64,000 nt of DNA. Origin: Rhodococcus jostii NBRC 16295 (GTDB lineage: Bacteria; Actinomycetota; Actinomycetes; Mycobacteriales; Mycobacteriaceae). The notes under the pieces were generated by a model, which worked only from the letters and a program-made list of their open reading frames with translations, searched no databases and had not been told where the DNA came from. The position numbers and the translations under genes were made by a program. Below, piece by piece: positions 10,142-45,331 of this stretch. The stretch spans positions 1 to 64,000 of the forward strand of contig NZ_BCWY01000039.1 of assembly GCF_001894825.1 (NCBI RefSeq), given 5' to 3'. Each line of letters opens with the position of its first letter. Position 1 is the first letter of the stretch.

Positions 10142-10181
10142 GTGAGTGGCGAAGTGTGTTCCGGCACGCTTCGCCACTCAC
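10142..10181. terminator. 40-bp palindrome between convergent genes, likely bidirectional terminator
   Basis: It begins GTGAGTGGCGAAG and ends CTTCGCCACTCAC. Sixteen Watson-Crick pairs plus three G.T pairs leave almost no loop. It differs from the copy at 41958-41997 at only two bases. It lies 3 bp after the racemase stop and 4 bp beyond the stop of the convergent MocR gene. Confidence 0.75.
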
Positions 10182-10185
10182 GTGC

Positions 10186-11670
10186 TCAGACGACGAGAGA
10201 CGGCTCCGCGAGTTCACGGTCGACCGCGAGGGTCGCGTACGCTGCCGCGATACCGTCCACACCCCGGCGCAGTTCGTCGGACGTCCGCGCGTAGGGCAGG
10301 CGGACGAACCGCTCGAAAGCGCCCTCCACACCGAACCGCGGCCCCGCCGCCAGCAGCACCCCGAAGTTGGGGGCCGTCGCGGCCAGCGCCGTCGACACCG
10401 GTGCGGGCATACGTAGCCACAGGGACATCCCGCCCGAACCGATGGTCGGGATCCAGTCGGGCAGGCGGTCGGCGAGTGCATCGAGCATCGCGCTCCGCTG
10501 TTCCCGCAGTTCCGCCCGGCGACGTGCGAGGACGAGTTCGTCGTCGGAGAGCAGATGGGCTGCCGCCAGCTGATCCATCACCGGCGTGCCGAGGTCGACC
10601 GCCGCCCGGGCCCCGGCGAGCCGGGTGATCAGCGCCGGATCCGCTCGGATCCACCCGACGCGCAGACCACCCCAGAACGATTTGGCCGCCGACCCGATCG
10701 TCACCACCTCCGACTTCGCCGCTCCCCGGCCGTGCGCCGCGACCGGCCCCGGTGACGGCTCGTCGAGCCACAGGTCGACCATCGTCTCGTCCACCACCAG
10801 CGTCATGCGAGTGTCGCGCGCGATCCGCGCCAGTTCGGCCCGCCCGGACGCGTCGAGACACAGTCCGGTGGGGTTGTGGAAGTCCGGGATCAGGTACGCC
10901 ATCCGGGCGGCGGTCTGCCGGGCCGCGCTCCGGATGCCGTCCAGATCCCACGCCCCGGACGCCCCGCCCTCCGGACGGACGGGCACCGGAACCGGACGCG
11001 CACCTACCCGGCGGATCGCCTCCAGCGCGTTGGGATACGTGGGGTGATCGACCAGCACCCGCTCCCCCGGCGCCGTCAGCACGTTGAGGAGCAGCCGCAG
11101 AGCATGCTGCGCACCCGAGGTGACCATGATCTGCTCCGGGGACGTCTCGAGACCCCGCGCCCGATACCGGGCCGCGATGACGTCCCGCAGCGCGCCGATC
11201 CCCACCGGCTCCATGCCGTGCGTCGGGAGGAACTGCGGAAGTGATTGCAACGCATAGGCGTAGGCCTGTTCGACGGCCTCGGCTGGCGCGGCCATCGCGG
11301 CGTAGCTGAGGTCGACCACCGAGCTGTCGGAGCCCGGCTGGTGCGCCCGGAACATCAATCCGTTCTGCCGTGCCCCGAGCGGCAGCGCCACCGTGCTGCG
11401 CGACCCCTGACGGCTGATGAGATACCCCTCGTCGCGGAGCACCGAATACGACGACGTGATCGTGGTCCGGCTCAATTCCAGCACCGACGCCAGCTCGCGT
11501 TCGCTCGGCAACGCGACACCCAGGGGGATGCGTCCGTCGTGCACGAGCAGGCGGATCCCGTCGGCGAGCGCCCGGTAGGCCGGTCGCGCCGCCGAGCGGC
11601 GGCCACTGTCGTCCTGCCAGTTGCCGAGGTCCCTGGCCAGCGAGCGGGCTCCGAGCACACGAGTCATCAT
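10186..11670 (-). CDS. MocR/PdxR-type transcriptional regulator (GntR helix-turn-helix fused to aminotransferase domain)
   Basis: About 494 residues are predicted from ATG 11670; the frame is open to a GTG at 11685. A winged-helix GntR domain (ALPSERELASVLELSRTT region, about residues 50-110) is followed by a fold-type I aminotransferase domain. It contains SGAQHALRLLL, PDFHNPTG and the PLP-lysine motif GSAAKSFWGG. MocR regulators use PLP or amino-acid adducts as effectors and usually control vitamin B6, GABA or transport genes. The divergent neighbour is only a 68-codon reading frame, so the target is unclear. Autoregulation through the repeat at 11689-11708 is possible. Confidence 0.88.
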   Translation of the reverse strand: MMTRVLGARSLARDLGNWQDDSGRRSAARPAYRALADGIRLLVHDGRIPLGVALPSERELASVLELSRTTITSSYSVLRDEGYLISRQGSRSTVALPLGARQNGLMFRAHQPGSDSSVVDLSYAAMAAPAEAVEQAYAYALQSLPQFLPTHGMEPVGIGALRDVIAARYRARGLETSPEQIMVTSGAQHALRLLLNVLTAPGERVLVDHPTYPNALEAIRRVGARPVPVPVRPEGGASGAWDLDGIRSAARQTAARMAYLIPDFHNPTGLCLDASGRAELARIARDTRMTLVVDETMVDLWLDEPSPGPVAAHGRGAAKSEVVTIGSAAKSFWGGLRVGWIRADPALITRLAGARAAVDLGTPVMDQLAAAHLLSDDELVLARRRAELREQRSAMLDALADRLPDWIPTIGSGGMSLWLRMPAPVSTALAATAPNFGVLLAAGPRFGVEGAFERFVRLPYARTSDELRRGVDGIAAAYATLAVDRELAEPSLVV

Positions 11671-11688
11671 GCGGTCCAGTATCACCCT

Positions 11689-11708
11689 CTTGGCTATTCA
11701 TCTCCAAG
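11689..11708. promoter_or_regulatory. short inverted repeat CTTGG-N10-CCAAG upstream of the MocR gene
   Basis: The two five-base arms are perfect and flank ten bases just upstream of the MocR start, in the divergent gap. Placement suits an autoregulatory operator, but the arms are short. Confidence 0.3.
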
Positions 11709-11732
11709 CCAGTTCCCGCGAAGCTCGGATCC

Positions 11733-11939
11733 ATGACGACACTGATCACCCTCGCCTGCATGGTTCTCCTGGCCGCCGCGGTCGCACACTACGGCCCCAA
11801 AGAAGGAGGTAAGGGGCTATTTCGTCTGGAACAGTTCCGGATCGGCGCCCCGCTCGGCGGGATCTTCCACGAGGAGCCACCGGACCTCCATAAAAGGCCG
11901 AGCAGTCCAGATTCCGCCGACTGGACCTCCCAGACGTGA
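11733..11939 (+). CDS. small hypothetical protein with one N-terminal membrane segment
   Basis: The 68-residue frame begins with a hydrophobic stretch (about residues 3-19, LITLACMVLLAAAVAHY), then turns hydrophilic. It is divergent from the MocR regulator. The TGA stop (11937-11939) lies inside the first bases of the palindrome at 11936-11975. An AAGGAGG run at 11804-11810, strong enough to be a ribosome-binding site, lies inside the frame without a start codon soon after it. I recognise no family. It may be a genuine small membrane protein or the remnant of a larger one. Confidence 0.4.
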   Translation: MTTLITLACMVLLAAAVAHYGPKEGGKGLFRLEQFRIGAPLGGIFHEEPPDLHKRPSSPDSADWTSQT

Positions 11940-11975
11940 GTGCGAATGTGTGCCCGGGCACACATTCGCACTCAA
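11936..11975. terminator. 40-bp palindrome, GTGAGTGCGAATG variant
   Basis: The left half starts GTGAGTGCGAATGTGTGCCC and the right half mirrors it with a single mismatch at the outermost base: 19 pairs and no loop. It lies between the small + strand frame, whose stop codon it supplies, and the end of the phoD remnant at 11983. Confidence 0.75.
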
Positions 11976-11982
11976 GTCGGCG

Positions 11983-13553
11983 TCAGCGCGCCGGAGGCTG
12001 CAGGACCTGAGTGAACAGCACCGTCCCGGCCGCGTCGAGGAGAGCCACCCGCAACTTCGACGTCTTCCCGTCGACGAACACCTCGCCGAAGTGCTGGAAA
12101 CCGTCGAGCGGCGAGGAGTTGGGCGCAGGCGGTGCGTGCACGAACACCGCCTCGGGGCCGAACGTGGCATCGAGTTCGTTGGGACCGAATCCGCCCGCGT
12201 TGAGCGGACCGGACACGAACTCCCAGAACTCGTCGAAATCCTGGTACGCCGCCCGCTCGGGCGAGTACCGGTGCGCGGCGGTGTAGTGCACGTCCGCCGT
12301 GAGCCAGACGGTGCCGGTGATCCTGCCCGCCTTGATCGCCGACAGCACCTGCGCGATCTCGGACTCCCGGCCGGAGGGCCGACCCGGATCCCGGTTCGCG
12401 ACACCCTCGAACGCGGTGTCACCGTCCGGGACCACCACGCCGAGCGGGAGATCGTTGGCGATGATCTTCCATGTCGCCGTCGACGCACCGAGTTCGCGGA
12501 TCAGCCAGTCCTTCTGCGCTGCACCGAGAATCTGGCCGGCGGCTCGCGTGTTGGCCCCGTTCGCGTCCTTGTAGGTGCGCATGTCGAGGACGAAGACGTC
12601 GAGCAGTACCCGATCTTGCGGTACACCCGACCGTCGACCGCCTCTGCCGGCTCCACCGGCAGCCACTCGTGGTACGCCTGGAATGCCCTCTGCGCCAGCA
12701 CGTCCACGTTCTTCTCCGTGAATGCGTCGAGATCGAGGACCTCGCCGGGGTACCAGTTGTTGACGGTCTCGTGATCGTCCCACTGAACGATCTGCGCCAC
12801 AGAAGAATTGAACCTGCGGTAGTTGTCGTCGGTGAGGTTGTACGCGTACTGGCCGCGGTACTGGTCCAACGTCTGCGCGACCGCGCTCTTCGCCTCACTG
12901 ACTGTGTTCCGCCACACGCGTCCGTCCGGCAGCGTGACGGACTCCTTCAGCGGACCGTCGGCGTACACGACGTCGCCCGAGTGCAGGAACAGGTGCGGGT
13001 CGCGCGCGGCCATCGTGTCGAAGATTCGCATTCCGCCGATGTCCGGATTGATTCCGTATCCCTGACCAGCCGTGTCCCCGGACCATTGCAACCGGATGTC
13101 GCCTGCGGCGCTCGGAGCCGTGCGGATGACACCCGTCACCGCCTCCGAGGTGGAGCCGTCGTCGCCTTCGAGAGTCACGCGGTGGTGCACCTGCTGCCCG
13201 GCGGGTAGTCCGGTCAACCGCAACCTGCCGGTGCCGTCCGTGTCCGGGGTGAGCAAACCGTCCTCGTGACGCACCGGGTCGGTGAACGACTCGGTGGCCG
13301 AGGTCTCCACGATCATCTTCGCGGGACGGTCTGATCGCGCCCAGACGAGTGCACCGTCGGCTCGCACGTCCCCGGCCGCGACACCGTGCGTCAGGGTCGG
13401 CCGGTCGCGGACCAGCGCCGGACCCGAACCGCCGGAGTCGGAGCACGCCGCCGCAGGAACGGCGAGCAATCCGAGTGCGGTGGAGCGGAGCAGGGCACGG
13501 CGGGACAGATACCCGGAACATCTCCTCGGTCGGCGAGCTTCGAGGATGTCCAA
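11983..13553 (-). pseudogene. phoD: alkaline phosphatase D (PhoD), split by a frameshift near 12603-12608
   Basis: Two overlapping minus-strand frames together form one PhoD. The 5' frame (from TTG 13553) has a twin-arginine-like leader with RRALLRS and a possible lipobox VPAAAC, the N-terminal PhoD domain, SGDVVYADG and QWDDHETVNNWYPGE, and runs well to VYRKIGY. The 3' frame resumes at LLDVFVLDMRTYKD and contains TADVHYTAAH and the C-terminal metallophosphatase part to 11983. Joining needs one extra base (or four) around 12603-12608. An intact enzyme would be an exported phosphodiesterase/phosphomonoesterase. The lesion may be a real mutation or a single-base sequencing error. Confidence 0.8.
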
Positions 13554-16093: not shown

Positions 16094-16759
16094 TTGACCC
16101 CCGTAGTGCTCATTTGCGGCGATGCGCCGCTTCCCCTACCTCTGGGCTCCATTTCGACCTCGAGCGCACCTGCCGTCCCGGACAAGGACGACTTCGACGA
16201 GGTCTTCTCCAAACTGCAGGTGGTCGTGGATCCGCGACTGATCGTGGTGGGCAGCGACGCCGCTTTCGCGGCCACCCTGACACGGTTGATGCGCACCGAA
16301 CGCCTGCACATCGAACTCGCGTACGTCGCGGAGCATCGTTCGGACGCGACGGACGCCTACCATCTGTCTTCCGGCGCCCGCGGGGCCCGCACCGCCTTGA
16401 AGGGGACGGCCAAACCGGTCCCCCTCATCCGCGACGACGCGGGGATCGCGCTCGTCGGGTGCGCCGCCGTCACCGGTCCGGACGGGGGTCCGCTCGTCGG
16501 CGAGGCCTACGTCGACGACACCCGGTTGTTCTCCGGTACGACGACGAACATGACCGTCACCCCGACGCCACGGATGCCCGGCCTGCGGGCGTCGGTCGAA
16601 CCGCGCCGGCGCTGGCTGCCGCGCCGCTGGGTAGAGGGCCGCGCCGTGCAACTCGGATCACCTGCCGCCGCGCTCACCCGCGACGGCGTCCCCAACCCCC
16701 GCGACGTCAAGCGTTCGACGTTCTACCGCCACGACCAAGAGTGGTTGCTGGTGCGATGA
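16094..16759 (+). CDS. conserved actinobacterial hypothetical protein (Rv0358-like)
   Basis: Start TTG 16094 is chosen because GAGGAG at 16083-16088 sits five bases upstream; GTG 16088 overlaps that site and ATG 16037 lacks one. The 221-residue product opens with a beta-strand-like TPVVLICGD and ends with an arginine-rich patch. It has no membrane segment, and its function is unknown. The order purA (divergent), this gene, then a site-2-protease-like gene matches purA-Rv0358-Rv0359 of M. tuberculosis. The stop overlaps the next ATG (ATGA), so translation is coupled. Confidence 0.75.
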   Translation: MTPVVLICGDAPLPLPLGSISTSSAPAVPDKDDFDEVFSKLQVVVDPRLIVVGSDAAFAATLTRLMRTERLHIELAYVAEHRSDATDAYHLSSGARGARTALKGTAKPVPLIRDDAGIALVGCAAVTGPDGGPLVGEAYVDDTRLFSGTTTNMTVTPTPRMPGLRASVEPRRRWLPRRWVEGRAVQLGSPAAALTRDGVPNPRDVKRSTFYRHDQEWLLVR

Positions 16760-17529
16760 ACCTGCCCAGGGCACGGACCACCGCGGTCCGTCCCAGCCCG
16801 GTCTTCTTGGTGGTCGTCGCCGTGGCGGTTGCCGGCGGCGTCCTGGCATGGCCGGCCGGGCGCCAGTCGGTGCTCGGACACGTCGGGGTGTTCCTGCTGG
16901 TGGTCGCCGGCTGGGTGGTGACACTCTGCCTGCACGAGTTCGCGCACGCGTACACGGCATGGCGGCACGGCGACACCGACGTCGAGGTGCGCGGCTACCT
17001 CACTCTCAACCCGTTGAAGTACAGCCACCCGCTGCTGTCGATCGGTCTGCCGGTGCTGTTCATCGCACTCGGCGGGATCGGGTTGCCCGGTGGTGCCGTG
17101 TACCTGCGCACCGGGTTGTTCCCACCGAAGGTCCAGGCCCGGGTATCGCTTGCCGGGCCTGCCGTGAACCTGGTGTCGGCGATCGTCCTGCTCGTGGTGA
17201 TCCGCTGGTTCGGCCTGGGCGGCGACCACGAGGTGTTCTGGGCGGGACTGAGCTTTCTCGCCTTCCTGCAGGTGATGGCCACGGTTCTCAATCTCCTGCC
17301 GGTCCCCGGACTCGACGGCTACGCCGCACTCGAGCCGTTCCTGCCGCCCCGCACGCGTAGATCCGTCGACCAGTACAAGCCGTACGGACTGCTGATCCTC
17401 GTGGCGCTGCTGTTCGTGCCGTCCATCAACGTGGTGTTCTTCGACGCCATCTACGGACTCTTCGGACTGTCCGGGGTGCCGGAGATCTACGCGCAGTACG
17501 GCAACTATCTGATGCGCTTCTGGCTCTGA
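16756..17529 (+). CDS. site-2 protease family membrane metalloprotease (Rv0359-like)
   Basis: This 257-residue polytopic protein has the zinc motif HEFAH in VVTLCLHEFAHAYTAWR and the second zinc-ligand region NLLPVPGLDG. Both lie in hydrophobic segments, as in M50/S2P-clan proteases that cut substrates within the membrane. Further hydrophobic segments lie at the N-terminus (PSPVFLVVVAVAVAGGV) and before the C-terminus. Its substrate is unknown. It is coupled to the preceding conserved gene, which may be a partner. A 40-bp palindrome starts 3 bp after the stop. Confidence 0.88.
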   Translation: MNLPRARTTAVRPSPVFLVVVAVAVAGGVLAWPAGRQSVLGHVGVFLLVVAGWVVTLCLHEFAHAYTAWRHGDTDVEVRGYLTLNPLKYSHPLLSIGLPVLFIALGGIGLPGGAVYLRTGLFPPKVQARVSLAGPAVNLVSAIVLLVVIRWFGLGGDHEVFWAGLSFLAFLQVMATVLNLLPVPGLDGYAALEPFLPPRTRRSVDQYKPYGLLILVALLFVPSINVVFFDAIYGLFGLSGVPEIYAQYGNYLMRFWL

Positions 17530-17532
17530 GCT

Positions 17533-17572
17533 GTGAGTACTTATTAACCGCGGGCGGTTAATAAGTACTCAC
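17533..17572. terminator. 40-bp palindrome, GTGAGTACTTATTAACCGC variant
   Basis: Perfect 19-bp arms flank a two-base centre. It separates the convergent protease and HxlR genes. The HxlR stop TGA (minus strand, 17569-17571) is part of the conserved GTGAGT end. Confidence 0.85.
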
Positions 17573-18066
17573 GGGCGGGACGCATCCTCTTCGGTGAAGT
17601 TGGGGGTCACCCGCAGTTCCTGCAGCGGCACCTCCCGGCCCCGGCTGCGGACCTCGACGCGCACGGGTTCACCGGTCGCGTCGTCGCGCAGTTCGAGGGG
17701 AGGTCCGTACTTGTCCTGGAGATATTTGTCGCCCCACTGCATCAGTGCGAGGACAGCGGGCAGGAGGTCGCGCCCCTTCTCGGTGAGCACGTATTCGTAA
17801 CGGGTGCGCTGCCCGGGCTCCTTGTACGGTTGCCGCTCGAACAGGCCCTCCGCCGTCAGTTCACGCAGCCGGGACGCCGCCACTGCCTCCGTGATGCCGA
17901 CCCGCTGCGCGAAGTCGTCGAATCGTGTGGTGCCGTAGTAGGCCTCGCGCAGGATCAGGACGGCCGAACGCGTGCCGATCACGTCCATCGCCTTGCCGAT
18001 GGAGCAGTGCGTCGCCCGCCAGCTGTCGCGATCCGCGAGAAAGCCGTCCAACCGTGCCGCGTCCAT
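17569..18066 (-). CDS. HxlR-family transcriptional regulator
   Basis: The 165-residue winged-helix regulator contains THCSIGKAMDVIGTRSAVLILREAYYGTTRFDDF, a typical HxlR N-terminus (Cys at about 21), then RLRELTAEGLFER and the wing ...YEYVLTEKGRDL. HxlR proteins are dimers that often sense reactive electrophiles or oxidants through cysteine. A 24-bp inverted repeat lies 14 bp upstream of its start, and two more copies occur between the divergent redox operon and MFS gene 1.8 kb away. It is therefore inferred to be the local regulator of both, and of itself. The stop lies in the palindrome 17533-17572. Confidence 0.9.
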   Translation of the reverse strand: MDAARLDGFLADRDSWRATHCSIGKAMDVIGTRSAVLILREAYYGTTRFDDFAQRVGITEAVAASRLRELTAEGLFERQPYKEPGQRTRYEYVLTEKGRDLLPAVLALMQWGDKYLQDKYGPPLELRDDATGEPVRVEVRSRGREVPLQELRVTPNFTEEDASRP

Positions 18067-19855: not shown

Positions 19856-19879
19856 CTGACTATGGCACTCAATAGTCAG
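19856..19879. promoter_or_regulatory. predicted HxlR operator 3, overlapping the MFS start
   Basis: CTGACTATGGC...AATAGTCAG keeps the six-base arms and the 24-bp length. It begins 35 bp after operator 2, and CCATAGTCAG/CTGACTATGG of the two form a 10-bp inverted repeat. The ATG at 19862 lies inside it. Confidence 0.65.
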
Positions 19880-21268
19880 GTGCGTGAGCAAGCGCGGCTC
19901 GGCCCGCTCCTCACCGTCCTCTCCGGCGCGCCGTTCGTCGCGAGCCTCGACCTGTTCGTCGTCAACGTCGCGTTCGGCGACATCGGGGCGAGTTACCCCG
20001 GCTACAGCCTCGGCGACCTCAGCTGGGTGCTCGGTGGCTACGCGATCGTGTTCGCCGCGCTGCTGGTTCCGCTCGGACGCTGGGCAGACCGCGTCGGCCG
20101 CCGGCGCGGATTCCTCCTCGGCCTGGCCCTGTTCACCGCCGCCAGCGCCGCCTGCGCCCTGAGTCCCTCGCTGTGGCTGCTCGTCGCGTTCCGGCTGCTC
20201 CAGGCCGTCGGTGCGGCCGCACTGACCCCCGCGAGCCTGGGACTGCTGATCAGCACGGTCCCCGAAGCGAAACGCGCCGGTGCGGTCCGGATCTGGGCGG
20301 CGTCGGGTGCCGCGGCCGCCGCCTTGGGACCCGTGGTGGGCGGTCTTCTCGTCGAGGCGTCCTGGCGCTGGGCCTTCCTCGTCAACGTCCCCATCGGCAT
20401 CGCATTCCTGATCGCCACCGTCCGGTTGGTCCCCGACTTCCGACCCACCGCCCGCGACGCCGACCTCGACCTGTTCGGCGCGACCCTGCTGACCGTCGGC
20501 ATCGGCGCCCTCGCTCTCGGACTGGTCCAGGGACCCGCCTGGGGTTGGGGCGACCCGCGGATCGCGATCGCATTCACCGTCGCCGCCGCGTCCGTCGCAC
20601 TGTTCTGGTGGAGCAACAACCGGCAGCCCGAGCCGCTCATCGATCCGGCCATGCTGAAGGTGCGGACCTTCGCCTGGTCGAACGTGACCGCGCTCGCGTT
20701 CAGCGCCGCCTTCGCGGCCGGGTTGCTCGCGAACATCCTGTGGCTCCAGCAGGTGTGGGGTTACTCCGCCCTGCGCACCGGTCTCGCGATCGCGCCGGGC
20801 CCGTTGATGGTGCCGGTGTTCGCCGTCGTCGGCCAACTTCTTGCCCGCAGATTTTCCGCGGGCGCTCTCACCGCGGCAGGCAGCGCCCTCTGGGCGGCCG
20901 GCGCCCTGCTCGTTCTCGCATCCGTCGGGATGGAGCCGCAGTACGCGTCGGAACTGTTGCCCGGCTGGTTGATCGCCGGTGTCGGGGTCGGCCTGGCTCT
21001 GCCGACGATCCTGTCGTCCGCCACCGCGGGACTTCCGCAGTCGCGGTCGGCGACCGGTAGCGCCGTCGTCACCATGAGCCGTCAGATCGGCACCGTGCTG
21101 GGCGTCAGCATGCTCGTCGCCCTCCTGGGCACCACCGTCGGGTACGACGACACCCATTCCGCGTTCCAACTCGCCTGGACCGCGGTGGCCGCGGCGGCCG
21201 TCGTCGCCGCATTCACCGCGCCAGGTATGAACCCACCCCGTGAGTACTTGTCAACCGCCCGCGGTTGA
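19862..21268 (+). CDS. MFS drug-type exporter (DHA2-like, 14-helix class)
   Basis: The 468-residue hydrophobic protein has the MFS loop motif GRWADRVGRRRG (about 76-87) and many membrane segments, with length and pattern like the EmrB/QacA drug:proton antiporter class. No Shine-Dalgarno sequence precedes ATG 19862, so a leaderless message or the GTG at 19880 are possible. Predicted HxlR sites cover the promoter. Its last ten codons run into a 40-bp palindrome, whose second half supplies the TGA. The thiolase follows 30 bp later. It probably exports the compound that the HxlR protein senses, an inference from context. Confidence 0.88.
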   Translation: MALNSQVREQARLGPLLTVLSGAPFVASLDLFVVNVAFGDIGASYPGYSLGDLSWVLGGYAIVFAALLVPLGRWADRVGRRRGFLLGLALFTAASAACALSPSLWLLVAFRLLQAVGAAALTPASLGLLISTVPEAKRAGAVRIWAASGAAAAALGPVVGGLLVEASWRWAFLVNVPIGIAFLIATVRLVPDFRPTARDADLDLFGATLLTVGIGALALGLVQGPAWGWGDPRIAIAFTVAAASVALFWWSNNRQPEPLIDPAMLKVRTFAWSNVTALAFSAAFAAGLLANILWLQQVWGYSALRTGLAIAPGPLMVPVFAVVGQLLARRFSAGALTAAGSALWAAGALLVLASVGMEPQYASELLPGWLIAGVGVGLALPTILSSATAGLPQSRSATGSAVVTMSRQIGTVLGVSMLVALLGTTVGYDDTHSAFQLAWTAVAAAAVVAAFTAPGMNPPREYLSTARG

Positions 21269-21279
21269 CAAGTACTCAC
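21240..21279. terminator. 40-bp palindrome, GTGAGTACTTGTCAACCGC variant, overlapping the MFS 3' end
   Basis: Perfect 19-bp arms surround a two-base centre. It resembles the copy at 17533-17572, with paired changes in both arms. It is translated as the last residues of the MFS protein and ends 19 bp before the thiolase start. Confidence 0.8.
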
Positions 21280-21298
21280 AGCACCGAAAGGAAAGATC

Positions 21299-22468
21299 AT
21301 GAGAGACGCCGTCATCGTCGAGGCCGTCCGCACCCCCATCGGCAAGGGCAAGCCCACGGGCGCCCTGCACGGAGTGCACCCGGTCGACCTCCTCGCCCAC
21401 AGCCTCTCGACCCTCGTCGAGCGCACGGGGATCGATCCGGCACTGATCGACGATGTCATCGGCGGCACCGTCACGCAGGTCGGCGATCAGAGCCAGAACA
21501 TCACCCGCAGTGCACTTCTCGCCGCCGGATTTCCCGAATCCGTGCCCGGCACCACCGTCGACCGGCAGTGCGGCAGCAGCCAGCAGGCCGTCCACTTCGC
21601 CGCCCAGGGCGTGATGTCGGGCGCGTACGACATCGTCGTCGCCGCCGGCGTCGAATCGATGGGACGGGTTCCCATGGGGTCCAGCGGCATCGGCCGTGAA
21701 TCGATGGGCGTCGGCTTCGAACGCCGCTACCCCGACGGGCTCGTCCCGCAGGGCATCAGCGCCGAACTCATCGCCGCCCGCTGGGGCCTCTCGCGCACCC
21801 AGCTGGACGAGTTCGCCCTCCGTAGTCACCAGAAGGCCGCGGCGGCAACGAGTGCCGGGCACTTCGCGAAGGAACTCGCCGTCCTTCCCGAGTTGAGCGT
21901 CGACGAGGCCATCCGCCCGGACACGACCCTGGACGCGCTCGCCGCCCTGCGACCCGCATTCCGCAGCGACGTCTACGCGGAGCGGTTCCCGCAGATCGAC
22001 TGGTCGATCACGGCCGGCAACAGCAGTCCCCTGTCGGACGGAAGTGCCGCGCTCATGATCACGACCAGCGAGATCGCCGACCGGCTGGGACTGCAGCCCC
22101 TGGCCCGGCTCCACAGCTTCTCCGTCGTCGGCGACGACCCGCTGATGATGCTCACCGCAGTCATTCCGGCGACACGCAAGGTGCTGCAGCGCAGCGGCCT
22201 CGACATCTCCGACATCGACCTGTTCGAGGTCAACGAGGCGTTCGCGCCGGTGGTCCTGGCCTGGGCCGCAGACACCGGCGCCGACCTGGACCGCGTCAAC
22301 GTGCACGGCGGCGCCATCGCGCTCGGACATCCACTCGGGGCCAGCGGCGCCCGGCTGATGACCACGCTGGTGAACGCGATGGAACAGCGCGGGGCACGGT
22401 TCGGTCTGCAGACCATGTGCGAGGCCGGCGGACTCGCCAACGCCACGGTGCTCGAGCGACTCGTGTGA
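21299..22468 (+). CDS. acetyl-CoA acetyltransferase / 3-ketoacyl-CoA thiolase
   Basis: The 389-residue thiolase has active-site Cys in DRQCGSSQQAV (about 90), the NEAFA motif, GGAIALGHPLGASGAR with the catalytic His, and a C-terminal CEAGGLAN with the second Cys. It cleaves 3-ketoacyl-CoA or condenses acetyl-CoA in the cytoplasm. It lies 30 bp after the MFS gene and behind the palindrome at 21240, so it may be separately expressed; GAAAGGAAAG precedes its ATG. No other beta-oxidation gene is adjacent. Confidence 0.93.
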   Translation: MRDAVIVEAVRTPIGKGKPTGALHGVHPVDLLAHSLSTLVERTGIDPALIDDVIGGTVTQVGDQSQNITRSALLAAGFPESVPGTTVDRQCGSSQQAVHFAAQGVMSGAYDIVVAAGVESMGRVPMGSSGIGRESMGVGFERRYPDGLVPQGISAELIAARWGLSRTQLDEFALRSHQKAAAATSAGHFAKELAVLPELSVDEAIRPDTTLDALAALRPAFRSDVYAERFPQIDWSITAGNSSPLSDGSAALMITTSEIADRLGLQPLARLHSFSVVGDDPLMMLTAVIPATRKVLQRSGLDISDIDLFEVNEAFAPVVLAWAADTGADLDRVNVHGGAIALGHPLGASGARLMTTLVNAMEQRGARFGLQTMCEAGGLANATVLERLV

Positions 22469-28157: not shown

Positions 28158-28163
28158 ACGACT

Positions 28164-28203
28164 GTGCGCCTTTCCGGTAGCGGTGACCACCGGAAAGGCG
28201 CAC
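28164..28203. terminator. 40-bp palindrome, GTGCGCCTTTCCGGT variant
   Basis: Fifteen-base perfect arms (GTGCGCCTTTCCGGT and its complement) surround ten bases, giving the same 40-bp length as the GTGAGT palindromes but with GTGCGC ends. It lies between the convergent Rv0361-like and fba genes. Confidence 0.75.
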
Positions 28204-28216
28204 GAGCGCGAAGCGC

Positions 28217-29251
28217 CTATCCGGAGACGGAACGTCCCGCGGACTTGAGGTCGTTGCAGGCCTCGATGACGCGAGCAGTCATGCCGGCCTCCGCCTTCTT
28301 GAGGTAGCTGCGCGGGTCGTAGTACTTCTTGTTGCCGACCTCGCCGTCGATCTTCAGGACGCCGTCGTAGTTCGCGAACATGTGGCCCACGATGGGACGG
28401 GTGAACGCGTACTGGGTGTCGGTGTCGACGTTCATCTTGACGACGCCGTAGTTCAGCGCGGCCTCGATCTCCGACTTCAGCGAGCCCGATCCGCCGTGGA
28501 AGACGAAGTCGAACGGCTGCGAGCTGTCGGACAGCCCCAGCTTGGCGGCGGCGACCTTCTGGCCGGTCTCGAGCACCTCGGGGCGCAGCTTCACGTTGCC
28601 GGGCTTGTAGACGCCGTGCACGTTGCCGAACGTGGCGGCCAGCAGGTACTTGCCGTTCTCGCCGGTGCCGAGCGCGTCGACGGTCTTCTCGAAGTCCTCG
28701 GGCGAGGTGTACAGCTTGTCGTTGATCTCGGCTTCCACACCGTCCTCTTCACCACCGACGACGCCGATCTCGACCTCGAGGATGATGTTGGCGGCCTTCG
28801 CCTTCGCGAGGAGTTCCTGGGCGATCTCCAGGTTCTCGTCGATCGGCACGGCCGAACCGTCCCACATGTGGGACTGGAAGAGGGGGTTGCGGCCCGCCTC
28901 GACGCGCTGGCGCGAGATCTCGAGCAGCGGACGGACGAAGGTGTCGAGCTTGTCCTTGGGGCAGTGATCGGTGTGCAGGGCGATCGTGACGTCGTACTTC
29001 GCGGCGATCACGTGAGCGAACTCGGCGAGTGCGACCGCGCCGGTCACCATGTCCTTGACACCCAGGCCCGAACCGAACTCGGCGCCACCCGTCGAGAACT
29101 GGATGATGCCGTCACTGCCGGCATCCGCGAAGCCCTTGATGGCGGCGTTGATGGTTTCGGAAGAAGTGCAGTTGATGGCGGGGAAGGCAAAGGAGTGCTC
29201 CTTGGCCCGACCAAGCATCTCGGCGTAGACCTCGGGAGTCGCGATTGGCAC
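28217..29251 (-). CDS. fba: class II fructose-bisphosphate aldolase
   Basis: Start GTG 29251 gives 344 residues beginning PIATPEVYAEML. HTDHCPKDKLDTF and the VFHGGSGS block supply the zinc ligands and substrate loop of class II aldolases, and NVDTDTQYAFTRP is the other substrate-binding block. The enzyme interconverts fructose-1,6-bisphosphate with DHAP and glyceraldehyde-3-phosphate in glycolysis and gluconeogenesis. It is convergent with the Rv0361-like gene and divergent from two DedA genes. Confidence 0.97.
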   Translation of the reverse strand: MPIATPEVYAEMLGRAKEHSFAFPAINCTSSETINAAIKGFADAGSDGIIQFSTGGAEFGSGLGVKDMVTGAVALAEFAHVIAAKYDVTIALHTDHCPKDKLDTFVRPLLEISRQRVEAGRNPLFQSHMWDGSAVPIDENLEIAQELLAKAKAANIILEVEIGVVGGEEDGVEAEINDKLYTSPEDFEKTVDALGTGENGKYLLAATFGNVHGVYKPGNVKLRPEVLETGQKVAAAKLGLSDSSQPFDFVFHGGSGSLKSEIEAALNYGVVKMNVDTDTQYAFTRPIVGHMFANYDGVLKIDGEVGNKKYYDPRSYLKKAEAGMTARVIEACNDLKSAGRSVSG

Positions 29252-37475: not shown

Positions 37476-37512
37476 TGTACGCAATGCGGGATCATTGCCC
37501 GCTTTGCGTACA
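37476..37512. promoter_or_regulatory. inverted repeat TGTACGCAATGCGGG-N7-CCCGCTTTGCGTACA upstream of benE-like gene
   Basis: The 15-base arms have a single mismatch and a seven-base centre, ending 34 bp before the transporter start. It may be a regulator site (the TTGTACGCAA element is GntR-like) or an attenuator hairpin. No regulator gene is adjacent. Confidence 0.55.
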
Positions 37513-40691: not shown

Positions 40692-41948
40692 GTGAGCACC
40701 ACGACCGTCACGAACAGCACATCCAGCGAGGCACCGCCAAGCCTCCTCCACCAGCCGAAATCGGTCTGGGCAGTCGCCTTCGCCAGCGTCATCGCCTTCA
40801 TGGGAATCGGCCTCGTGGACCCCATCCTCAAGCCCATCGGCGAACAACTGGACGCGACGCCGTCCCAGGTGTCACTGCTGTTCACCAGCTACATGCTGGT
40901 CACCGGCGTCGCAATGCTCATCACCGGAGTGGTGTCGAGCCGGATCGGCGCCAAGAAGACGCTCCTCACCGGTCTCGCCGTCATCGTCGTGTTCGCGGCG
41001 CTTGCCGGAAGCTCCGGCACCATCGACCAGATCGTCGGTTTCCGCGCCGGCTGGGGCCTGGGTAACGCCCTCTTCATCGCCACCGCGCTCGCAGCCATCG
41101 TCGGCGCGGCCAGCGGCGGCGTCGCACGGGCCATCATCCTGTACGAGGCCGCACTGGGCATCGGCATCGCCGTCGGCCCGCTGGTCGGCGGAGTCCTCGG
41201 CAACATCAGCTGGCGCGCACCGTTCTTCGGCGTCGCCGCCCTGATGGCCGTCGCGTTCATCCTCATCGTCGTGATGCTGCCATCCGCCCCGAAACCGGAG
41301 CACCGCACGTCGATCGCCGCGCCGTTCCTCGCCTTGCGCCACCGCGGCCTGTTCACCGTCGCGATCACCGCACTGCTCTACAACTACGGCTTCTTCACAC
41401 TGCTCGCGTACACGCCGTTCCCGCTCGACATGGGCACGTACTCGATCGGATTCATCTTCTTCGGGTGGGGACTCGCACTGGCGATCGCATCGGTGTTCCT
41501 CGCCCCGCGGCTGCAGCGACGCTTCGGCACCCTGCCGATGATGATGCTGGCCCTGGCGCTGTTCGCCCTCGACCTCGCCATGATGGCCGCATTCACCGAC
41601 AGCAAGACCGTGCTGATCGTCGGTGTCGTGCTCGCCGGGCTCTTCCTCGGTGTCAACAACACCCTCATCACCGAGACCGTGATGATCTCCGCTCCCGTCG
41701 AGCGGTCGACGGCGTCCGCGGCGTACAGCTTCGTCCGCTTCGTCGGTGGCGCCGCAGCACCGTGGGTCGCGGGCAAGCTCGGTGAGAGCAACATGCACAT
41801 GCCGTTCTGGGTCGGCGCCGCCTGCACCGCCGCCGCGATCCTCGTGCTGGCGACCGGACGCAAGGTCCTCGCCCACGTCGACGACCACGACCCGGAACCG
41901 CACAGCGTCGAGGAAGCACTGGCCGTCACGGCCGCCGACGCCGACTGA
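40692..41948 (+). CDS. MFS transporter (12-helix drug/sugar-type efflux)
   Basis: GTG 40692 is chosen because AGGAGG (40681-40686) lies five bases before it, while GTG 40686 overlaps that site. The 418 residues begin with a ~25-residue soluble tail, then show FMGIGLVDPILKPIGEQL and the loop VVSSRIGAKKTLLTG, giving 12 segments. YEAALGIGIAVGPLVGG is an antiporter-like motif C. It probably exports a toxic compound under the MarR regulator. A 40-bp palindrome follows the stop by 9 bp. Confidence 0.9.
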   Translation: MSTTTVTNSTSSEAPPSLLHQPKSVWAVAFASVIAFMGIGLVDPILKPIGEQLDATPSQVSLLFTSYMLVTGVAMLITGVVSSRIGAKKTLLTGLAVIVVFAALAGSSGTIDQIVGFRAGWGLGNALFIATALAAIVGAASGGVARAIILYEAALGIGIAVGPLVGGVLGNISWRAPFFGVAALMAVAFILIVVMLPSAPKPEHRTSIAAPFLALRHRGLFTVAITALLYNYGFFTLLAYTPFPLDMGTYSIGFIFFGWGLALAIASVFLAPRLQRRFGTLPMMMLALALFALDLAMMAAFTDSKTVLIVGVVLAGLFLGVNNTLITETVMISAPVERSTASAAYSFVRFVGGAAAPWVAGKLGESNMHMPFWVGAACTAAAILVLATGRKVLAHVDDHDPEPHSVEEALAVTAADAD

Positions 41949-41957
41949 CAACCCCAG

Positions 41958-41997
41958 GTGAGTGGCGAAGTGTGCCCCGGCACGCTTCGCCACTCAC
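41958..41997. terminator. 40-bp palindrome between convergent MFS and pyrE genes
   Basis: It begins GTGAGTGGCGAAGTGTGCCC, with the mirror half ending GCCACTCAC. There are 18 Watson-Crick pairs and one G.T, and flanking CAG/CTG extend the stem to 41955-42000. It is nearly identical to 10142-10181. Confidence 0.8.
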
Positions 41998-42005
41998 CTG
42001 TGTGG

Positions 42006-42536
42006 TCAGAGGTTCAGGTCGGGAAGACCGAGCAGCGAGCGGTACTCGAGCCCCTCGGCCGCGATGATCTCGTCGGCCCCGGTCGCCCGGTCGACGACAG
42101 TCGCGACACCGACGACGATCGCCCCGACGTCCCGCAGCGCCTTCACCGCGGTGAGTGGGGAGTTACCCGTGGTGGTCGTGTCCTCGACCACCAGGACGCG
42201 CTTGCCGACGACGTCCGGACCCTCGATCTGCCGCTGCATCCCGTGCGCCTTCGCCGCCTTGCGCACCACGAACGAATCGATCGGCCTGCCCGGAGCGTGC
42301 ATCACGGCCATCGCCACCGGGTCGGCGCCCATCGTCAGCCCGCCGACGGCGTCGAAATCCCAGTCCGCCACCAGTTCACGCAGCAGCTTCCCGATCAGCG
42401 GGCCGGCCTCGTGATGCAATGTGGCGCGGCGCAGATCCACGTAGTAGTCGGCTTCCTTGCCCGAAGACAACGTCACCTTGCCGTGCACAACAGCCAGCTC
42501 ACGCACCAACGCGGCCAGATCCTCGCGATCACTCAT
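42006..42536 (-). CDS. pyrE: orotate phosphoribosyltransferase
   Basis: ATG 42536 gives 176 residues. The PRPP-binding motif VLVVEDTTTTGNS (about 112-124) and LSSGKEADYYVDLR near the N-terminus identify PyrE. It joins orotate to PRPP to make OMP, the fifth step of pyrimidine synthesis, in the cytoplasm. The order TrmH-like ... pyrE ... Rv0383c-like ... clpB follows mycobacteria. The SDR gene upstream (20-bp gap) is probably in the same transcript. Confidence 0.95.
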   Translation of the reverse strand: MSDREDLAALVRELAVVHGKVTLSSGKEADYYVDLRRATLHHEAGPLIGKLLRELVADWDFDAVGGLTMGADPVAMAVMHAPGRPIDSFVVRKAAKAHGMQRQIEGPDVVGKRVLVVEDTTTTGNSPLTAVKALRDVGAIVVGVATVVDRATGADEIIAAEGLEYRSLLGLPDLNL

Positions 42537-42556
42537 GCCCGAAACCCTACCCAGTC

Positions 42557-43351
42557 CTACGTGCGGGCACGCCCCCGGCCGAACACGTTGGTCAACCGCC
42601 GGACCAGACTCTTCGGGACGAGACGACCGACGGTCGTGAGGACCTTGTACTGCACGCCGGGGATGCTGACGACCTTGCCGTTCTCCAGATCGGACAGCGA
42701 CGCCGCGACCACCTGATCGACGCTCAGCCACATGGGCTTCGGAATCGAGCTCATCTCGATGCCCGCGCGCTCGTGGAACTCGGTGCGGATGAACCCGGGG
42801 CACAGCGCCTGGATCCGCACCCCCGTGCCGCCCAGCCCGTTCGCCAAACCCTCGGAGAACGAGATGACGTACGCCTTGCTCGCCGAATAGGTCGATCCCC
42901 GCCCGGACAGCAGGCCGGCAACGCTCGCCACGTTGACGACGGTGCCGTTGGCCGCCGCGATCATGCCGGGCAACGCCGCGCGGGTCAGCTGCATCACGGC
43001 GGTGACGTTGACGTCCAGCTGGGACTGCAACAGCTCCGGCGTCGCGGTCCAGAATTCACCCGAGGTGCCGAATCCAGCGTTGTTGACGAGCACCTCGACG
43101 CCCTTGCCGAGTCGCTGCGCCACTTCCTCGCGCCCGGACGCCGTCGCCAGATCGGCTTGCAGGATCTCGGATTCGGTGTCGAACAACGCCTTCATCTCGT
43201 CGGCGAGGGCGCGGAGGCGGGTCTCGTCACGGGCGACGAGCACGAGGTCGTAACCGAGAGAAGCGAACTTCCTCGCGAAGCCGGCACCGAGCCCCGAAGT
43301 CGGGCCGGTGACGAGGGCAACAGGTCGGGCGGAACTGGGGGGCGTCGACAT
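42557..43351 (-). CDS. short-chain dehydrogenase/reductase
   Basis: ATG 43351 gives 264 residues; longer in-frame starts are rejected because SARPVALVTGPTSGLG already places the cofactor motif at residues 14-21. NNAG, VNVASVAGLL and catalytic YSASK are present. The C-terminal extension (VQYKVLTTVGRLVPKSLVRRL) is basic and amphipathic, as in membrane-associated SDRs. The substrate is unknown. It precedes pyrE on the same strand. Confidence 0.87.
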   Translation of the reverse strand: MSTPPSSARPVALVTGPTSGLGAGFARKFASLGYDLVLVARDETRLRALADEMKALFDTESEILQADLATASGREEVAQRLGKGVEVLVNNAGFGTSGEFWTATPELLQSQLDVNVTAVMQLTRAALPGMIAAANGTVVNVASVAGLLSGRGSTYSASKAYVISFSEGLANGLGGTGVRIQALCPGFIRTEFHERAGIEMSSIPKPMWLSVDQVVAASLSDLENGKVVSIPGVQYKVLTTVGRLVPKSLVRRLTNVFGRGRART

Positions 43352-43382
43352 ACCGGTGACGGTAGCAAGGCACTGCCCGCCT

Positions 43383-43422
43383 GTGCGCGGTTGACGAGTC
43401 CTGGGACTCCTCAGGCACTCAC
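43383..43422. repeat. degenerate 40-bp palindrome
   Basis: Fourteen of 20 positions still pair. It ends ACTCAC, and GCGGTTGACGAGT resembles the right arm of 21240-21279. Its GTGAGT end supplies the TGA stop of the gene at 43419 (minus strand). I read it as a decayed member of the 40-bp family. Confidence 0.5.
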
Positions 43423-44150
43423 GGGCGCGGAGCGCCTGGGGCCGGCTTGCGTGGTGGCGCGGGCCGCGCGTCAGCCGGGGCGCCTTCCCGCAGTCGCGGC
43501 CTGCTCGGGTCGTGATGCCCGCGGTCGAGTCCACGCGGCTCGGTGACCGGGGGCAGGACGTGCAGGATGCCGGACAGCCGGGCGACGGCCTCGATGGCCG
43601 AATCCCACTCCCGTCCGCTGCTGCCGATGGGCAGCGAACCGAGGGTCCATTCGCCTTCGCTCCACAGCATGTTCACGTGCGGCGGCACCGACTCGGTGAA
43701 CGCGACCATGCGCTGATCGCAGACCCTGCGGGCGATCTCGAGGTCGGTGGCGAACACCACCCGCGGTCCGATGGCCCCGAGGAGTTCGAGATCCGAATCC
43801 TTCGGCGGCGGGGTCGACTTGAGCCGCAGGTCGATGTCGACGTCCGAACCCACCCGGCGACGCACCGCGACGATGGTCGCGGTCTCCTCGAGGTCGAACA
43901 GGATGAACGACTCACCCCGGCGTTCGCCCTTCACGACGTCGATGGCGCTGAGGTACTCCTGCTTGGCCAGTGCGGCGCGGTGGAACTGGGCCGGCAGCCG
44001 GTCTTCGACGTTGTCGTAGGTGTAGCCCTGGGCCTTGGCCCAGATCTGCCGCACCCGACCCGTCTGATCACGACGCGAGCGATCGAAATAGAGCAGCGCG
44101 CACGCGCCTGCGAGTGCGATCAACGCCAGTACGAACCACATTCCGGTCAT
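43419..44150 (-). CDS. conserved membrane-anchored protein (Rv0383c-like)
   Basis: The 243-residue protein has one N-terminal membrane segment (MWFVLALIALAGACALLYF, about 4-22) and a soluble domain (YTYDNVEDRLPAQFHRAALA; SFILFDLEETATIVAVRRR; NMLWSEGEWTLGSLP). A Pro/Arg-rich tail ends in APRP. The function is unknown. Its position next to clpB and pyrE matches M. tuberculosis Rv0383c. The stop codon lies in a degenerate palindrome. Confidence 0.8.
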   Translation of the reverse strand: MTGMWFVLALIALAGACALLYFDRSRRDQTGRVRQIWAKAQGYTYDNVEDRLPAQFHRAALAKQEYLSAIDVVKGERRGESFILFDLEETATIVAVRRRVGSDVDIDLRLKSTPPPKDSDLELLGAIGPRVVFATDLEIARRVCDQRMVAFTESVPPHVNMLWSEGEWTLGSLPIGSSGREWDSAIEAVARLSGILHVLPPVTEPRGLDRGHHDPSRPRLREGAPADARPAPPRKPAPGAPRP

Positions 44151-44235
44151 CGATGATCAGCCTAGCGAGTCGACGGCGTAACGAGGGTAGGCGGTACCGG
44201 GACACCCCGTGTCGGTTTTGCCCGGACTCGTCAAC

Positions 44236-45195
44236 TCAGTTGCCGCCGAGCTTCGGCAGTTCGGTGCTGATGATCGTCTCGGCCGTCATCGTGCCGTTCT
44301 CGACCTTCGTTCCCTGAACCATGACGGTGAATCCGGGCTTCAGGTCGGCGACCGTCGCGCCGTCGAGTGCGATCACATTCGTCTGCGCGTTCGTCTGGAC
44401 CGTCACCTGGGAACCGCCGATGACGTCGAGGGTGAGAGTGGAGCCGTCGTTGGCGCTGATCGTTCCGAACGCGGCGCCCGCCGCGCCGATGGCCTCACCG
44501 ATGCCGCCGGGGAGTTGGTCGAGCGGCGACTCCGACGTGGTCGACGGCGGTGGTGTCGTCTTCGGCGGCGCGGTGGTGGCGGGTGGTCGGGACGTAGTCG
44601 GGCCCGCCGCCGTGGTGCTCGAGGAGTTGTTCGGCGCGGTCGTGAAGAGGGCGACACCGAAGCCGATGACGGCGATCAGCAGCAGCGCCGCCGCCGCGGC
44701 CGCGATCCACGTGCCGATCCGGCGGGGCTTCTTCTCCCCGGCGCCCTCGGCGGCCGGCGCCTGGTACTGCGAGCCCGGGTACTGGGCGTTCGGGTACTGG
44801 GCGTTCGGGTACTGACCCGTCGGATAGCCGCCCTGGTACTGCTGGGCATCGTAGGGCGGGTACGCCTGGGTGGCGTTCGGCGGCGGAGCCTGCTGGTCGT
44901 ACCGCGGGTCGTAGGCCGGGTAGGCCTGCGTCGGGTGGGGCTGATTCTGCCCGTACGCCGTGGTCGGGTCGGACGTGTAGAACTGCTCGGTCGGCCGGCC
45001 GGCCGGACCCATGTGCTCCGTGCGCTGCTCGGGCGAGCCGATGTTCTCGGTCGGCTGGTCCTGCCGCGACCAGGCTTGGGTGGGGTCGGACTCCGTTCCG
45101 TCCGGCGTCCACGACTCCGTGCCGTCCGGTCTCCACGACTCCGTGCCGTCGTACGCGCGTTCCTGCGGGGTACGCGGATCGTCGGGGTTCGTCAT
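44236..45195 (-). CDS. DUF5666-domain membrane protein with repetitive N-terminus
   Basis: The 319 residues comprise a cytoplasmic ~150-residue low-complexity region and one membrane helix (IGTWIAAAAAALLLIAVIGFG, about 160-180). A Thr/Pro-rich linker and an external beta domain (FGTISANDGSTLTLDVIGG; VTVQTNAQTNVIALDG) of DUF5666 type follow. The N-terminal region contains DGTESW-type repeats (about 16-36) and YPNAQ repeats. DUF5666 is an OB-like fold with no assigned role. It lies downstream of clpB, separated by a palindrome. Confidence 0.8.
   Translation of the reverse strand: MTNPDDPRTPQERAYDGTESWRPDGTESWTPDGTESDPTQAWSRQDQPTENIGSPEQRTEHMGPAGRPTEQFYTSDPTTAYGQNQPHPTQAYPAYDPRYDQQAPPPNATQAYPPYDAQQYQGGYPTGQYPNAQYPNAQYPGSQYQAPAAEGAGEKKPRRIGTWIAAAAAALLLIAVIGFGVALFTTAPNNSSSTTAAGPTTSRPPATTAPPKTTPPPSTTSESPLDQLPGGIGEAIGAAGAAFGTISANDGSTLTLDVIGGSQVTVQTNAQTNVIALDGATVADLKPGFTVMVQGTKVENGTMTAETIISTELPKLGGN
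44776..44814 (-). repeat. 15-bp tandem repeat encoding YPNAQ
   Basis: CGGGTACTGGGCGTT occurs at 44776 and 44791, with a third partial unit at 44806, in frame within the Tyr/Pro/Gln-rich segment of the DUF5666 protein. Confidence 0.8.
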
Positions 45196-45291
45196 GATCG
45201 GCCCCTCCCTCGGGTTCGTGTGGCCGGTGTCCTGCAGTTACGGAGGGTCCAGGGTAACGGCGAAACTTAAGACATCGCTGTGAATACACAG

Positions 45292-45331
45292 GTGAGTGGC
45301 ACGGTGTGCGGGAGCACACCGTGCCACTCAC
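45292..45331. terminator. 40-bp palindrome downstream of clpB
   Basis: Perfect 18-base arms (GTGAGTGGCACGGTGTGC and its complement) enclose GGGA, and CAG/CTG extend the stem to 45289-45334. It starts 10 bp beyond the clpB stop and probably ends its transcript. Confidence 0.85.

What the first reader, a model, noticed from the sequence alone, without database searches (positions are those of the whole stretch)
10142..45331. Family of exactly 40-bp palindromes with GTGAGT...ACTCAC ends and varying interiors
Nine palindromes (121, 10142, 11936, 17533, 21240, 28164, 41958, 43383, 45292) are all 40 bp long. Most share GTGAGT/ACTCAC ends, while the inner 28 bases differ between copies yet stay self-complementary. 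Two copies 32 kb apart differ at only two bases. Fixed length plus compensatory change suggests selection on the hairpin, or a dispersed short element, rather than unrelated terminators. Rho-independent terminators would not be expected to keep one length and one terminal hexamer.
Basis: seen in the sequence. Interest (0 to 1): 0.75.

Follow-up and report, generated by a model that had tools for sequence, protein, structure and literature searches.

The report
Fixed-length palindromes at gene ends
This bacterium and some of its relatives carry many near-identical 40-46-letter palindromes just after gene ends, where they probably mark the ends of RNA messages; different lineages use different interior spellings, and what reads that spelling is unknown.

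Summary
GTGAGT-N28-ACTCAC occurs 162 times in the 9.73-Mb genome against 0 for the reversed control; allowing spacers of 14-44 gives 168 against 4. The conserved unit is nearer 46 bp, because bases just outside are family-specific too. At least four interior families (A-D) share the length.

Copies lie a median 4 nt from stop codons, most often between convergent genes. In 39 ortholog comparisons the length is 40 in 37 and 39 in 2. The outer six pairs changed at 8 of 468 side-positions, positions 10-14 at 69 of 390. Family B shows compensatory pairing.

In 32 of 301 genomes of the GTDB family (four genera) there are five or more copies, with different interiors in different lineages. At one gene end (pyrE-like) the same slot holds different interiors in different clades; at two other gene ends some clades have a hairpin with a T-rich tail instead.

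Best reading: U-poor, often bidirectional 3'-end hairpins (terminator or RNA-end protector), constrained in sequence as well as structure. Family A is the weak point: no strand bias, weak covariation, some copies between divergent genes, so a DNA-level role is open. No RNA data were available.

The parts
118..163 (.). family B palindrome (40-bp core 121-160); gene context unresolved at the window edge
10139..10184 (.). family B palindrome (core 10142-10181) between convergent genes 9041-10138 (+, CoA-transferase III) and 10186-11670 (-, GntR/aminotransferase)
11933..11978 (.). B-like palindrome (core 11936-11975) just downstream of gene 11983-12582 (-, PhoD-like); the G004 counterpart is too short to hold one
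17530..17575 (.). family A palindrome (core 17533-17572) between convergent genes 16756-17529 (+, M50 peptidase) and 17569-18066 (-, HxlR); the minus-strand gene stops in the element's end; found in 10 of 26 genomes examined, all of the big-genome clade
21237..21282 (.). family A palindrome (core 21240-21279); called ORF 19862-21268 (+, MFS) stops inside it; thiolase gene 21299-22468 (+) follows
28161..28206 (.). family D palindrome (core 28164-28203, GTGCGC ends) between convergent genes 27129-28157 (+) and 28217-29251 (-, class II aldolase)
41955..42000 (.). family B palindrome (core 41958-41997) between convergent genes 40692-41948 (+, MFS) and 42006-42488 (-, phosphoribosyltransferase domain; 'pyrE-like' is my recall)
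43380..43425 (.). family C palindrome (core 43383-43422, 14 of 20 pairs here); its end supplies the stop codon of gene 43419-44150 (-)
45289..45334 (.). family B palindrome (core 45292-45331), 6 nt after the stop of gene 45341-47893 (-, ClpB-like), 9 nt from the core

Best explanation
The palindromes are RNA 3'-end hairpins. Transcribed past a stop codon, each folds into a stem of about 18-21 bp that ends or protects the message. Because the DNA is palindromic, one copy can serve both genes of a convergent pair. They mostly lack the U-tract of canonical terminators. They differ from ordinary U-less hairpins in being held to one length and a family-specific sequence, which points to a reader (RNA polymerase or an accessory factor, an RNase or an RNA-binding protein) that recognises sequence within the stem and has drifted into lineage-specific 'dialects'. 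Shown: position, length, constraint, predicted RNA folding, covariation in family B, and T-tailed hairpins in the same place in other clades. Inferred: that they act as RNA, that they end or stabilise transcripts, and that a sequence-specific reader exists.
For: Position: of 337 gene 3' ends facing an element, 325 lie within -35..60 nt, median 4 nt (partly pattern-chosen sample). Census of window + C2 (343 kb, not chosen by pattern): 40-mers in 9 of 51 convergent, 6 of 196 tandem and 1 of 51 divergent junctions; convergent against the rest, Fisher p = 0.0003. Same place, other hairpin: downstream of the aldolase gene 11 of 28 genomes have 40-mer D, while G001, G002, G011, G012, G022 have a shorter GC hairpin, in four of the five ending in ATTTT. 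Downstream of the clpB-like gene nine of 26 genomes have B (seven at 40 bp, two at 39) and nine others a GCCCCG..CGGGGC hairpin with a T-rich tail. Structure: family B covariation 0.164 against 0.101 shuffled, 0 of 500 reach it; slid controls lower. RNA folds of ten window stretches: -28.2 to -46.1 kcal/mol, z -4.4 to -9.7. RNA-level asymmetry: tandem sites, sense G.U 60, antisense 27, other mismatches 63; sites 32 v 13, p = 0.007; ortholog groups 20 v 8, p = 0.036. Sequence constraint without a finder that fixes the ends: 39 comparisons with G000, outer six pairs changed at 8 of 468 side-positions, positions 10-14 at 69 of 390 (summed).
Against: No transcript data. Family A shows no G.U strand bias (7 v 6 groups) and weak covariation (51 of 500 shuffles reach its score); 4 of 28 A copies in G000 lie between divergent genes with no ORF ending at them. 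In G000 alone the G.U bias is not significant (8 v 5 sites), and the B+C+D grouping was made after seeing the data. Transcription-linked C-to-T mutation could also give a sense G.U excess. In ortholog comparisons one-sided changes (75) outnumber compensated ones (16), and the outer six pairs did change in 6 of 39. 34 of 51 convergent junctions have no hairpin by my threshold. At the clpB-like site a TTTT lies a few nt after the element in 8 of the 9 genomes that have B (not in G000), so U-runs are rare, not absent. The review read in passages (PMC12288462) cites work for and against U-less termination in mycobacteria.
Confidence: 0.6

Rival explanations
1. They are DNA-level binding sites: a dimeric or tetrameric protein (nucleoid-associated, or a roadblock to RNA polymerase or replication) reads the 46-bp palindrome as double-stranded DNA, and its position at convergent gene ends reflects where such a roadblock is useful or harmless.
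For: Family A has 29 of 46 columns invariant in 26 distinct rows (ends partly fixed by how stretches were chosen) and weak covariation; no strand bias in A and some divergent-gene copies; blocks 1-10 and 14-16 separated by variable positions 11-13.
Against: Half-sites do not occur alone for A in 853 kb of G000 (0 of 56), unusual for a dimer site. Family B shows compensatory change. Flanks extend the stem more than shuffled flanks in G000 (mean run 2.51 v 1.92, p = 0.0015), but not in G068 (p = 0.90) or G086 (p = 0.97). T-tailed hairpins in the same place at two gene ends.
Confidence: 0.2
2. They are mobile palindromic units (REP- or MITE-like) that spread within each lineage and are tolerated just after stop codons; some were later used as terminators.
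For: Homogeneous families that differ between lineages, the A site 17533 filled in only 10 of 26 genomes, site 11936 missing in G004, the pyrE-like site without the element in G009, and stop codons supplied by the element end in 91 of 324 facing gene ends, as insertion near a 3' end would give.
Against: Y1 transposase (PF01797) absent from copy-rich G010, G068, G086, G273 and present in zero-copy G014 and G015 (G000 has one and G004 two matches); almost no unpaired half-sites; A and B patterns gave nothing in viral contigs; ortholog change is concentrated at a few positions. Other transposase types were not searched.
Confidence: 0.13
3. They are uptake-type or exchange-type signals: a genome-wide short sequence read during DNA import, arranged as inverted pairs that also terminate transcription, as with DUS/USS.
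For: Lineage dialects and a place in presumed terminators resemble Neisseriaceae DUS (PMC3630211, passages) and uptake-signal terminators (PMC1852404, passages).
Against: The half-sequence is almost never single in the sampled DNA, and copies number 162, not a thousand or more. Natural uptake was not tested.
Confidence: 0.04
4. Ordinary intrinsic terminators whose likeness is incidental.
For: Position and hairpin strength fit; other hairpins in the same genome vary in length.
Against: 162 against 0 for one length and end pair, sequence families, U-tract rare.
Confidence: 0.03

Closest known systems
U-less ('I-shaped') intrinsic terminators described for mycobacteria (review PMC12288462, passages; the primary papers seen only as its references)
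   Same: Hairpin within 50 bp after the stop codon, no U-tract; mycobacteria belong to the same GTDB family (recalled)
   Different: The passages read describe no fixed length, shared end sequence or sequence family; action without a U-tract is itself disputed there
Uptake-signal terminators of Neisseria and Pasteurellaceae (DUS/USS; PMC1852404 and PMC3630211, passages)
   Same: Same sequence repeated at many gene ends as an inverted pair; lineage-specific dialects
   Different: DUS/USS are about 9-12 nt, in a thousand or more copies and also found singly; here full palindromes of one length, 162 exact copies
REP/BIME/REPIN palindromes with RAYT transposases (recalled; PMC3116915 seen in a search listing, PMC12306157 in passages)
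   Same: Dispersed palindromes between genes
   Different: No Y1 transposase in four copy-rich genomes; kept at orthologous sites; the main text of PMC12306157 does not hold the word Rhodococcus
Spaced motif pairs of Tong et al. 2017 (PMC5217627, abstract and passages)
   Same: Finds palindromic motif pairs at fixed spacing, some near gene 3' ends or between convergent genes
   Different: The passages read report no such Rhodococcus motif; its supplements were not looked at

Membership tests
Canonical (U-tailed) intrinsic terminator | T-run directly after the hairpin | tested here: not met
   At least 4 T in the 8 nt after the 40-mer: A 0 of 39, B 1 of 35, C 0 of 38, D 1 of 4 gene ends in G000; a TTTT a few nt further on at the clpB-like site in 8 of 9 genomes with B
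Canonical (U-tailed) intrinsic terminator | Strong hairpin just after the stop codon | tested here: met
   325 of 337 within -35..60 nt; folds
U-less (I-shaped) terminator | Hairpin without U-tract within 50 bp of the stop | tested here: met
U-less (I-shaped) terminator | Causes termination | not testable with these tools
   needs RNA 3'-end data or an in vitro assay
REP/RAYT | Y1 (REP-associated) transposase in copy-rich genomes | tested here: not met
   PF01797 in 10 genomes: none in G010, G068, G086, G273, G001, G003; one in G000 (35.8 bits), two in G004; four each in zero-copy G014 and G015
MITE / IS end derivative | Terminal repeats also present as solo ends | tested here: not met
   G000 sample 853 kb: unpaired A-outer 0 of 56, A 0 of 53, B 1 of 35, C 0 of 22, D 0 of 6; other genomes 1.0 Mb: A 1 of 36, A-outer 2 of 37, B 1 of 20, W 1 of 51, C 0 of 12, D 0 of 16; most of each genome not sampled
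MITE / IS end derivative | Target-site duplication at empty/filled pairs | not tested
   no close strain pair was at hand; flanks of site 17533 too diverged
DUS/USS | Short signal abundant also as single copies | tested here: not met
DUS/USS | Lineage dialects | tested here: met
Any Rfam family | Match at gathering score | tested here: not met
   0 matches in the window

The most novel reading that the evidence does not exclude
A sequence-specific 3'-end system: a reader in part of the GTDB family recognises a stem of one length, its specificity drifts between lineages, and about 160 gene-end palindromes change interior 'dialect' in concert while keeping place, length and outer ends.
Probability: 0.3. 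Interest if true: 0.85.

Novelty: new variant of a known kind. Interest (0 to 1): 0.66.

Why it matters
How Actinobacteria end transcripts without U-tracts is disputed. Here is a large natural set of U-poor 3'-end hairpins of one length, with base-level constraint mapped and lineage-specific sequence. It makes a question testable: which bases, and which factor, make such a hairpin work. Homogeneous interiors at many fixed sites within a genome, differing between lineages, also need an explanation that compensatory change at each site alone does not give.

Tried and rejected
REP/RAYT: rejected on the distribution of PF01797 in 10 genomes. IS-end origin: almost no solo ends in sampled DNA. Phage or plasmid origin: A and B patterns gave 0 stretches in viral contigs (C and D not scanned); blastn of a 40-nt A query in plasmids and of a B query in phages gave none, but BLAST may handle such queries badly. 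Rfam: none. Recent dispersal as the reason for likeness: spoken against by ortholog comparisons.

In print: searches of openly licensed PMC full text. Searches were listed whole; others (15 of 37; 20 of 100; 20 of 42; 12 of 34) only in part. No title or abstract start that I saw describes these palindromes; the one Rhodococcus paper listed for AAGTACTCAC has it in a primer. Subscription papers were not searched.

Weak points of my own counts. The 80 loci were fetched with a pattern that fixes A positions 1-10 and 14-16, so searches are biased for A. My element finder requires GTG..CAC ends, so positions 1-3 are fixed by construction; one search repeats the ortholog comparison without it (56 site-by-genome cases: 39 compared, 16 skipped for lack of a usable flank or region, 1 with too short a cut although one search shows an element there). 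Stretches of G000 C3-C17 and C5 were chosen around GTGAGT hits. Searches of other genomes fixed the length at 40, so they do not test length; the hairpin scans do, and show cases of other length too. One of the 26 'C' rows is a coding false positive; three of the 87 G000 rows fell in no family and were dropped. Genes come from my own codon-usage caller; 19 of 250 elements fell inside called genes and were left out of distances. One search failed on a script error and was rerun.
Full report
NAMES. 'Big-genome clade' means the Rhodococcus genomes G000, G004, G005, G007, G008, G009, G010, G016, G026 and G027. 'pyrE-like' and 'G001-like clade' are my labels.

WHAT IS THERE. The nine 40-mers are real. 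In the genome (G000, 9,727,115 bases) GTGAGT-N28-ACTCAC occurs 162 times and the pattern read backwards 0 times. With any spacer from 14 to 44 the count is 168 against 4. A hairpin scan of 463 kb finds 55 hairpins against 2 in one Markov shuffle; 51 of the 55 lie outside called genes. Hairpins in that list that are not of this set run from 29 to 55 bp.

FAMILIES AND EXTENT. The 87 unique G000 elements in the sampled DNA are A (28, GTGAGTACTTrTyAACcgC), B (26, GTGAGTGgcaawG.Gtgc), C (26, one a coding false positive, GTGaGtGgttracGAGtc), D (4, GTGCGCCtTtyyGGt) and 3 unassigned. Reading outward, -2 is C in all A halves and A in all B halves, -3 is mostly C, and -1 varies. The unit is therefore about 46 bp.

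WHERE THEY SIT. In the big-genome sample (250 elements, partly pattern-chosen) 120 are between convergent genes, 95 in tandem, 13 divergent, 19 inside called genes and 3 at ends. 325 of 337 facing gene ends lie within -35..60 nt. In 91 of 324 facing gene ends the stop codon is the TGA inside GTGAGT (A 66, B 10, C 14, D 1). In the window plus C2 (343 kb, not chosen by pattern) 40-mers are in 9 of 51 convergent, 6 of 196 tandem and 1 of 51 divergent junctions; 34 of 51 convergent junctions have no hairpin by my threshold. Flanking genes are of unrelated kinds.

HOW THEY EVOLVE. I compared eight window sites with seven relatives. Of 56 cases 39 could be compared: 37 are 40 bp and two 39 bp. Changes against G000: outer six pairs 8 of 468 side-positions, positions 10-14 69 of 390. 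A: position 11 changed 12 of 16, 13 7 of 16, positions 8-10 and 14-16 none. B: 14 changed 14 of 36, 10 8 of 36, positions 6-8 none. C: 11 and 13 (7 and 6 of 12), also 8 and 9. D: 16, 18 and 12. Six of 39 have a change in the outer six pairs. By pair: 75 one-sided, 16 compensated, 3 both sides without pairing. The relatives are not independent of one another. An earlier count with a finder that fixes GTG..CAC points the same way. Among 44 ortholog groups found that way one mixes families.

STRUCTURE OR SEQUENCE. Family B (26 sites) shows covariation beyond all 500 shuffles and the slid controls, with seven pairs changed on both sides (that last measure is reached by 51 of 500 shuffles). Family A shows little (score reached by 51 of 500; percentage paired by 74 of 500). 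In a permutation of arms B pairs 367 of 414 against 348.7 +/- 4.4, A 456 of 486 against 448.4 +/- 3.6, C 383 of 450 against 373.0 +/- 5.3. Flanks pair further than shuffled flanks in G000 (p = 0.0015; A 0.018, B 0.031, C 0.28) but not in G068 or G086. In tandem sites sense G.U 60, antisense 27, other mismatches 63; sites 32 v 13; by ortholog group B+C+D 13 v 2, A 7 v 6, all 20 v 8; G000 alone 8 v 5. This favours RNA for B-D and leaves A open; four A, one B and one D copies in G000 lie between divergent genes without an ORF ending at them.

ACROSS THE FAMILY. Of 301 genomes 64 have at least one exact hit, in 13 of 31 genera; by my reading of the table the reversed control hits 22 genomes, never more than twice, so single hits mean little. 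Thirty-two genomes have five or more, in four genera (g1, g6, g16, g22). Places were listed for only some genomes. Among these, G068 (196 copies) shows mostly GTGAGTCTTTTnGGAGTC, G086 (132) GTGAGTCyTTTCGGAGGg and G273 (47) GTGAGTGAAAATGTATAG. These searches fixed the length, so they do not test it.

ONE SLOT, MANY INTERIORS. Between the MFS and pyrE-like genes (27 genomes), 14 have a 40-mer, nine of family B (big-genome clade) and five of family C (G001, G002, G011, G012, G022); three have 2.1-4.6 kb of other DNA; in ten the left gene was not found. Looking only downstream of the pyrE-like gene (32 genomes): an exact 40-mer with GTG..CAC ends in 8 of 15 Rhodococcus genomes (B in G000 and G007; C in G001, G011, G022; D-like in G003, G015, G023) and in 5 of 17 of other genera (G073, G081, G262, G273, G288, each with its own interior). 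Hairpins of other length: G021 (38), G017 (52 with flanks, core 42), G024 (48), G214 (36), G298 (44), G086 (20). None in the other 13, among them G009 of the big-genome clade and copy-rich G068. Downstream of the aldolase gene (29 loci of 28 genomes): D in 11, other 40-mers in G013 and G020, D-like by eye in G006 and G014, other hairpins at 13 loci (five of them the GC hairpin of the G001-like clade), one locus truncated. Downstream of the clpB-like gene (26 genomes, G002 without a hit): B in nine (two of 39 bp), a GCCCCG..CGGGGC hairpin with a T-rich tail in nine, the rest different or none. Eight of the nine B genomes, not G000, also have TTTT a few nt after the element. The A site 17533 holds the element in 10 of 26 genomes and no hairpin in 16; synteny of the neighbour was not checked in those.

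INTERPRETATION. Place after stop codons, bidirectional use, T-tailed hairpins in the same place in other clades and RNA-strand asymmetry make a 3'-end hairpin the best explanation. It would work like the U-less terminators proposed for mycobacteria (PMC12288462, passages), whose ability to terminate alone is disputed there, or as a block to 3' exonucleases after Rho action (recalled). Neither explains constrained length and bases. A reader that has diverged between lineages would, by analogy with DUS dialects (PMC3630211, passages), but I found no candidate and did not do the genome-wide protein comparison. Template-switch correction of imperfect palindromes (recalled) could give compensatory change without selection, but not its restriction to a few positions.

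LIMITS. Unnamed draft genomes, home-made gene calls, labels by recall, biased sampling in some counts, no RNA data, and literature limited to openly licensed full text, partly seen as capped lists.

Noticed in passing
G000 contig C2 at 58590, 101202, 102310, 129455 (L018, L021, L022): Another dispersed hairpin family, 51-55 bp, ends like GGGTGAATGTACC..GGTACATTCACCC, next to gene ends.
   Followed up: no
window 37476-37512: 37-bp hairpin TGTACGCA..TGCGTACA upstream of gene 37547; ends largely kept and middle varying in relatives, which looks like a regulator's operator.
   Followed up: no
window 59926-59970: 45-bp hairpin of a different kind between convergent genes, not present at the G009 counterpart.
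   Followed up: partly
window 43423 onward, counterparts in G005, G008, G010: Next to the C element these relatives carry runs of a GGGACGC-like repeat.
   Followed up: no
counterparts of window 41948-42006 in G013, G020, G025: 2.1-4.6 kb of extra DNA sits between the MFS and pyrE-like genes.
   Followed up: no
L184 (G022), counterpart of window 41958: A repeated fragment of the element end beside a complete element; a similar partial copy at the A site in G009.
   Followed up: no
counterparts of window 45292 in G004, G005, G007-G010, G026, G027: A conserved TGTTTTCACAG a few nt after the element, possibly a remnant or a working T-run.
   Followed up: no
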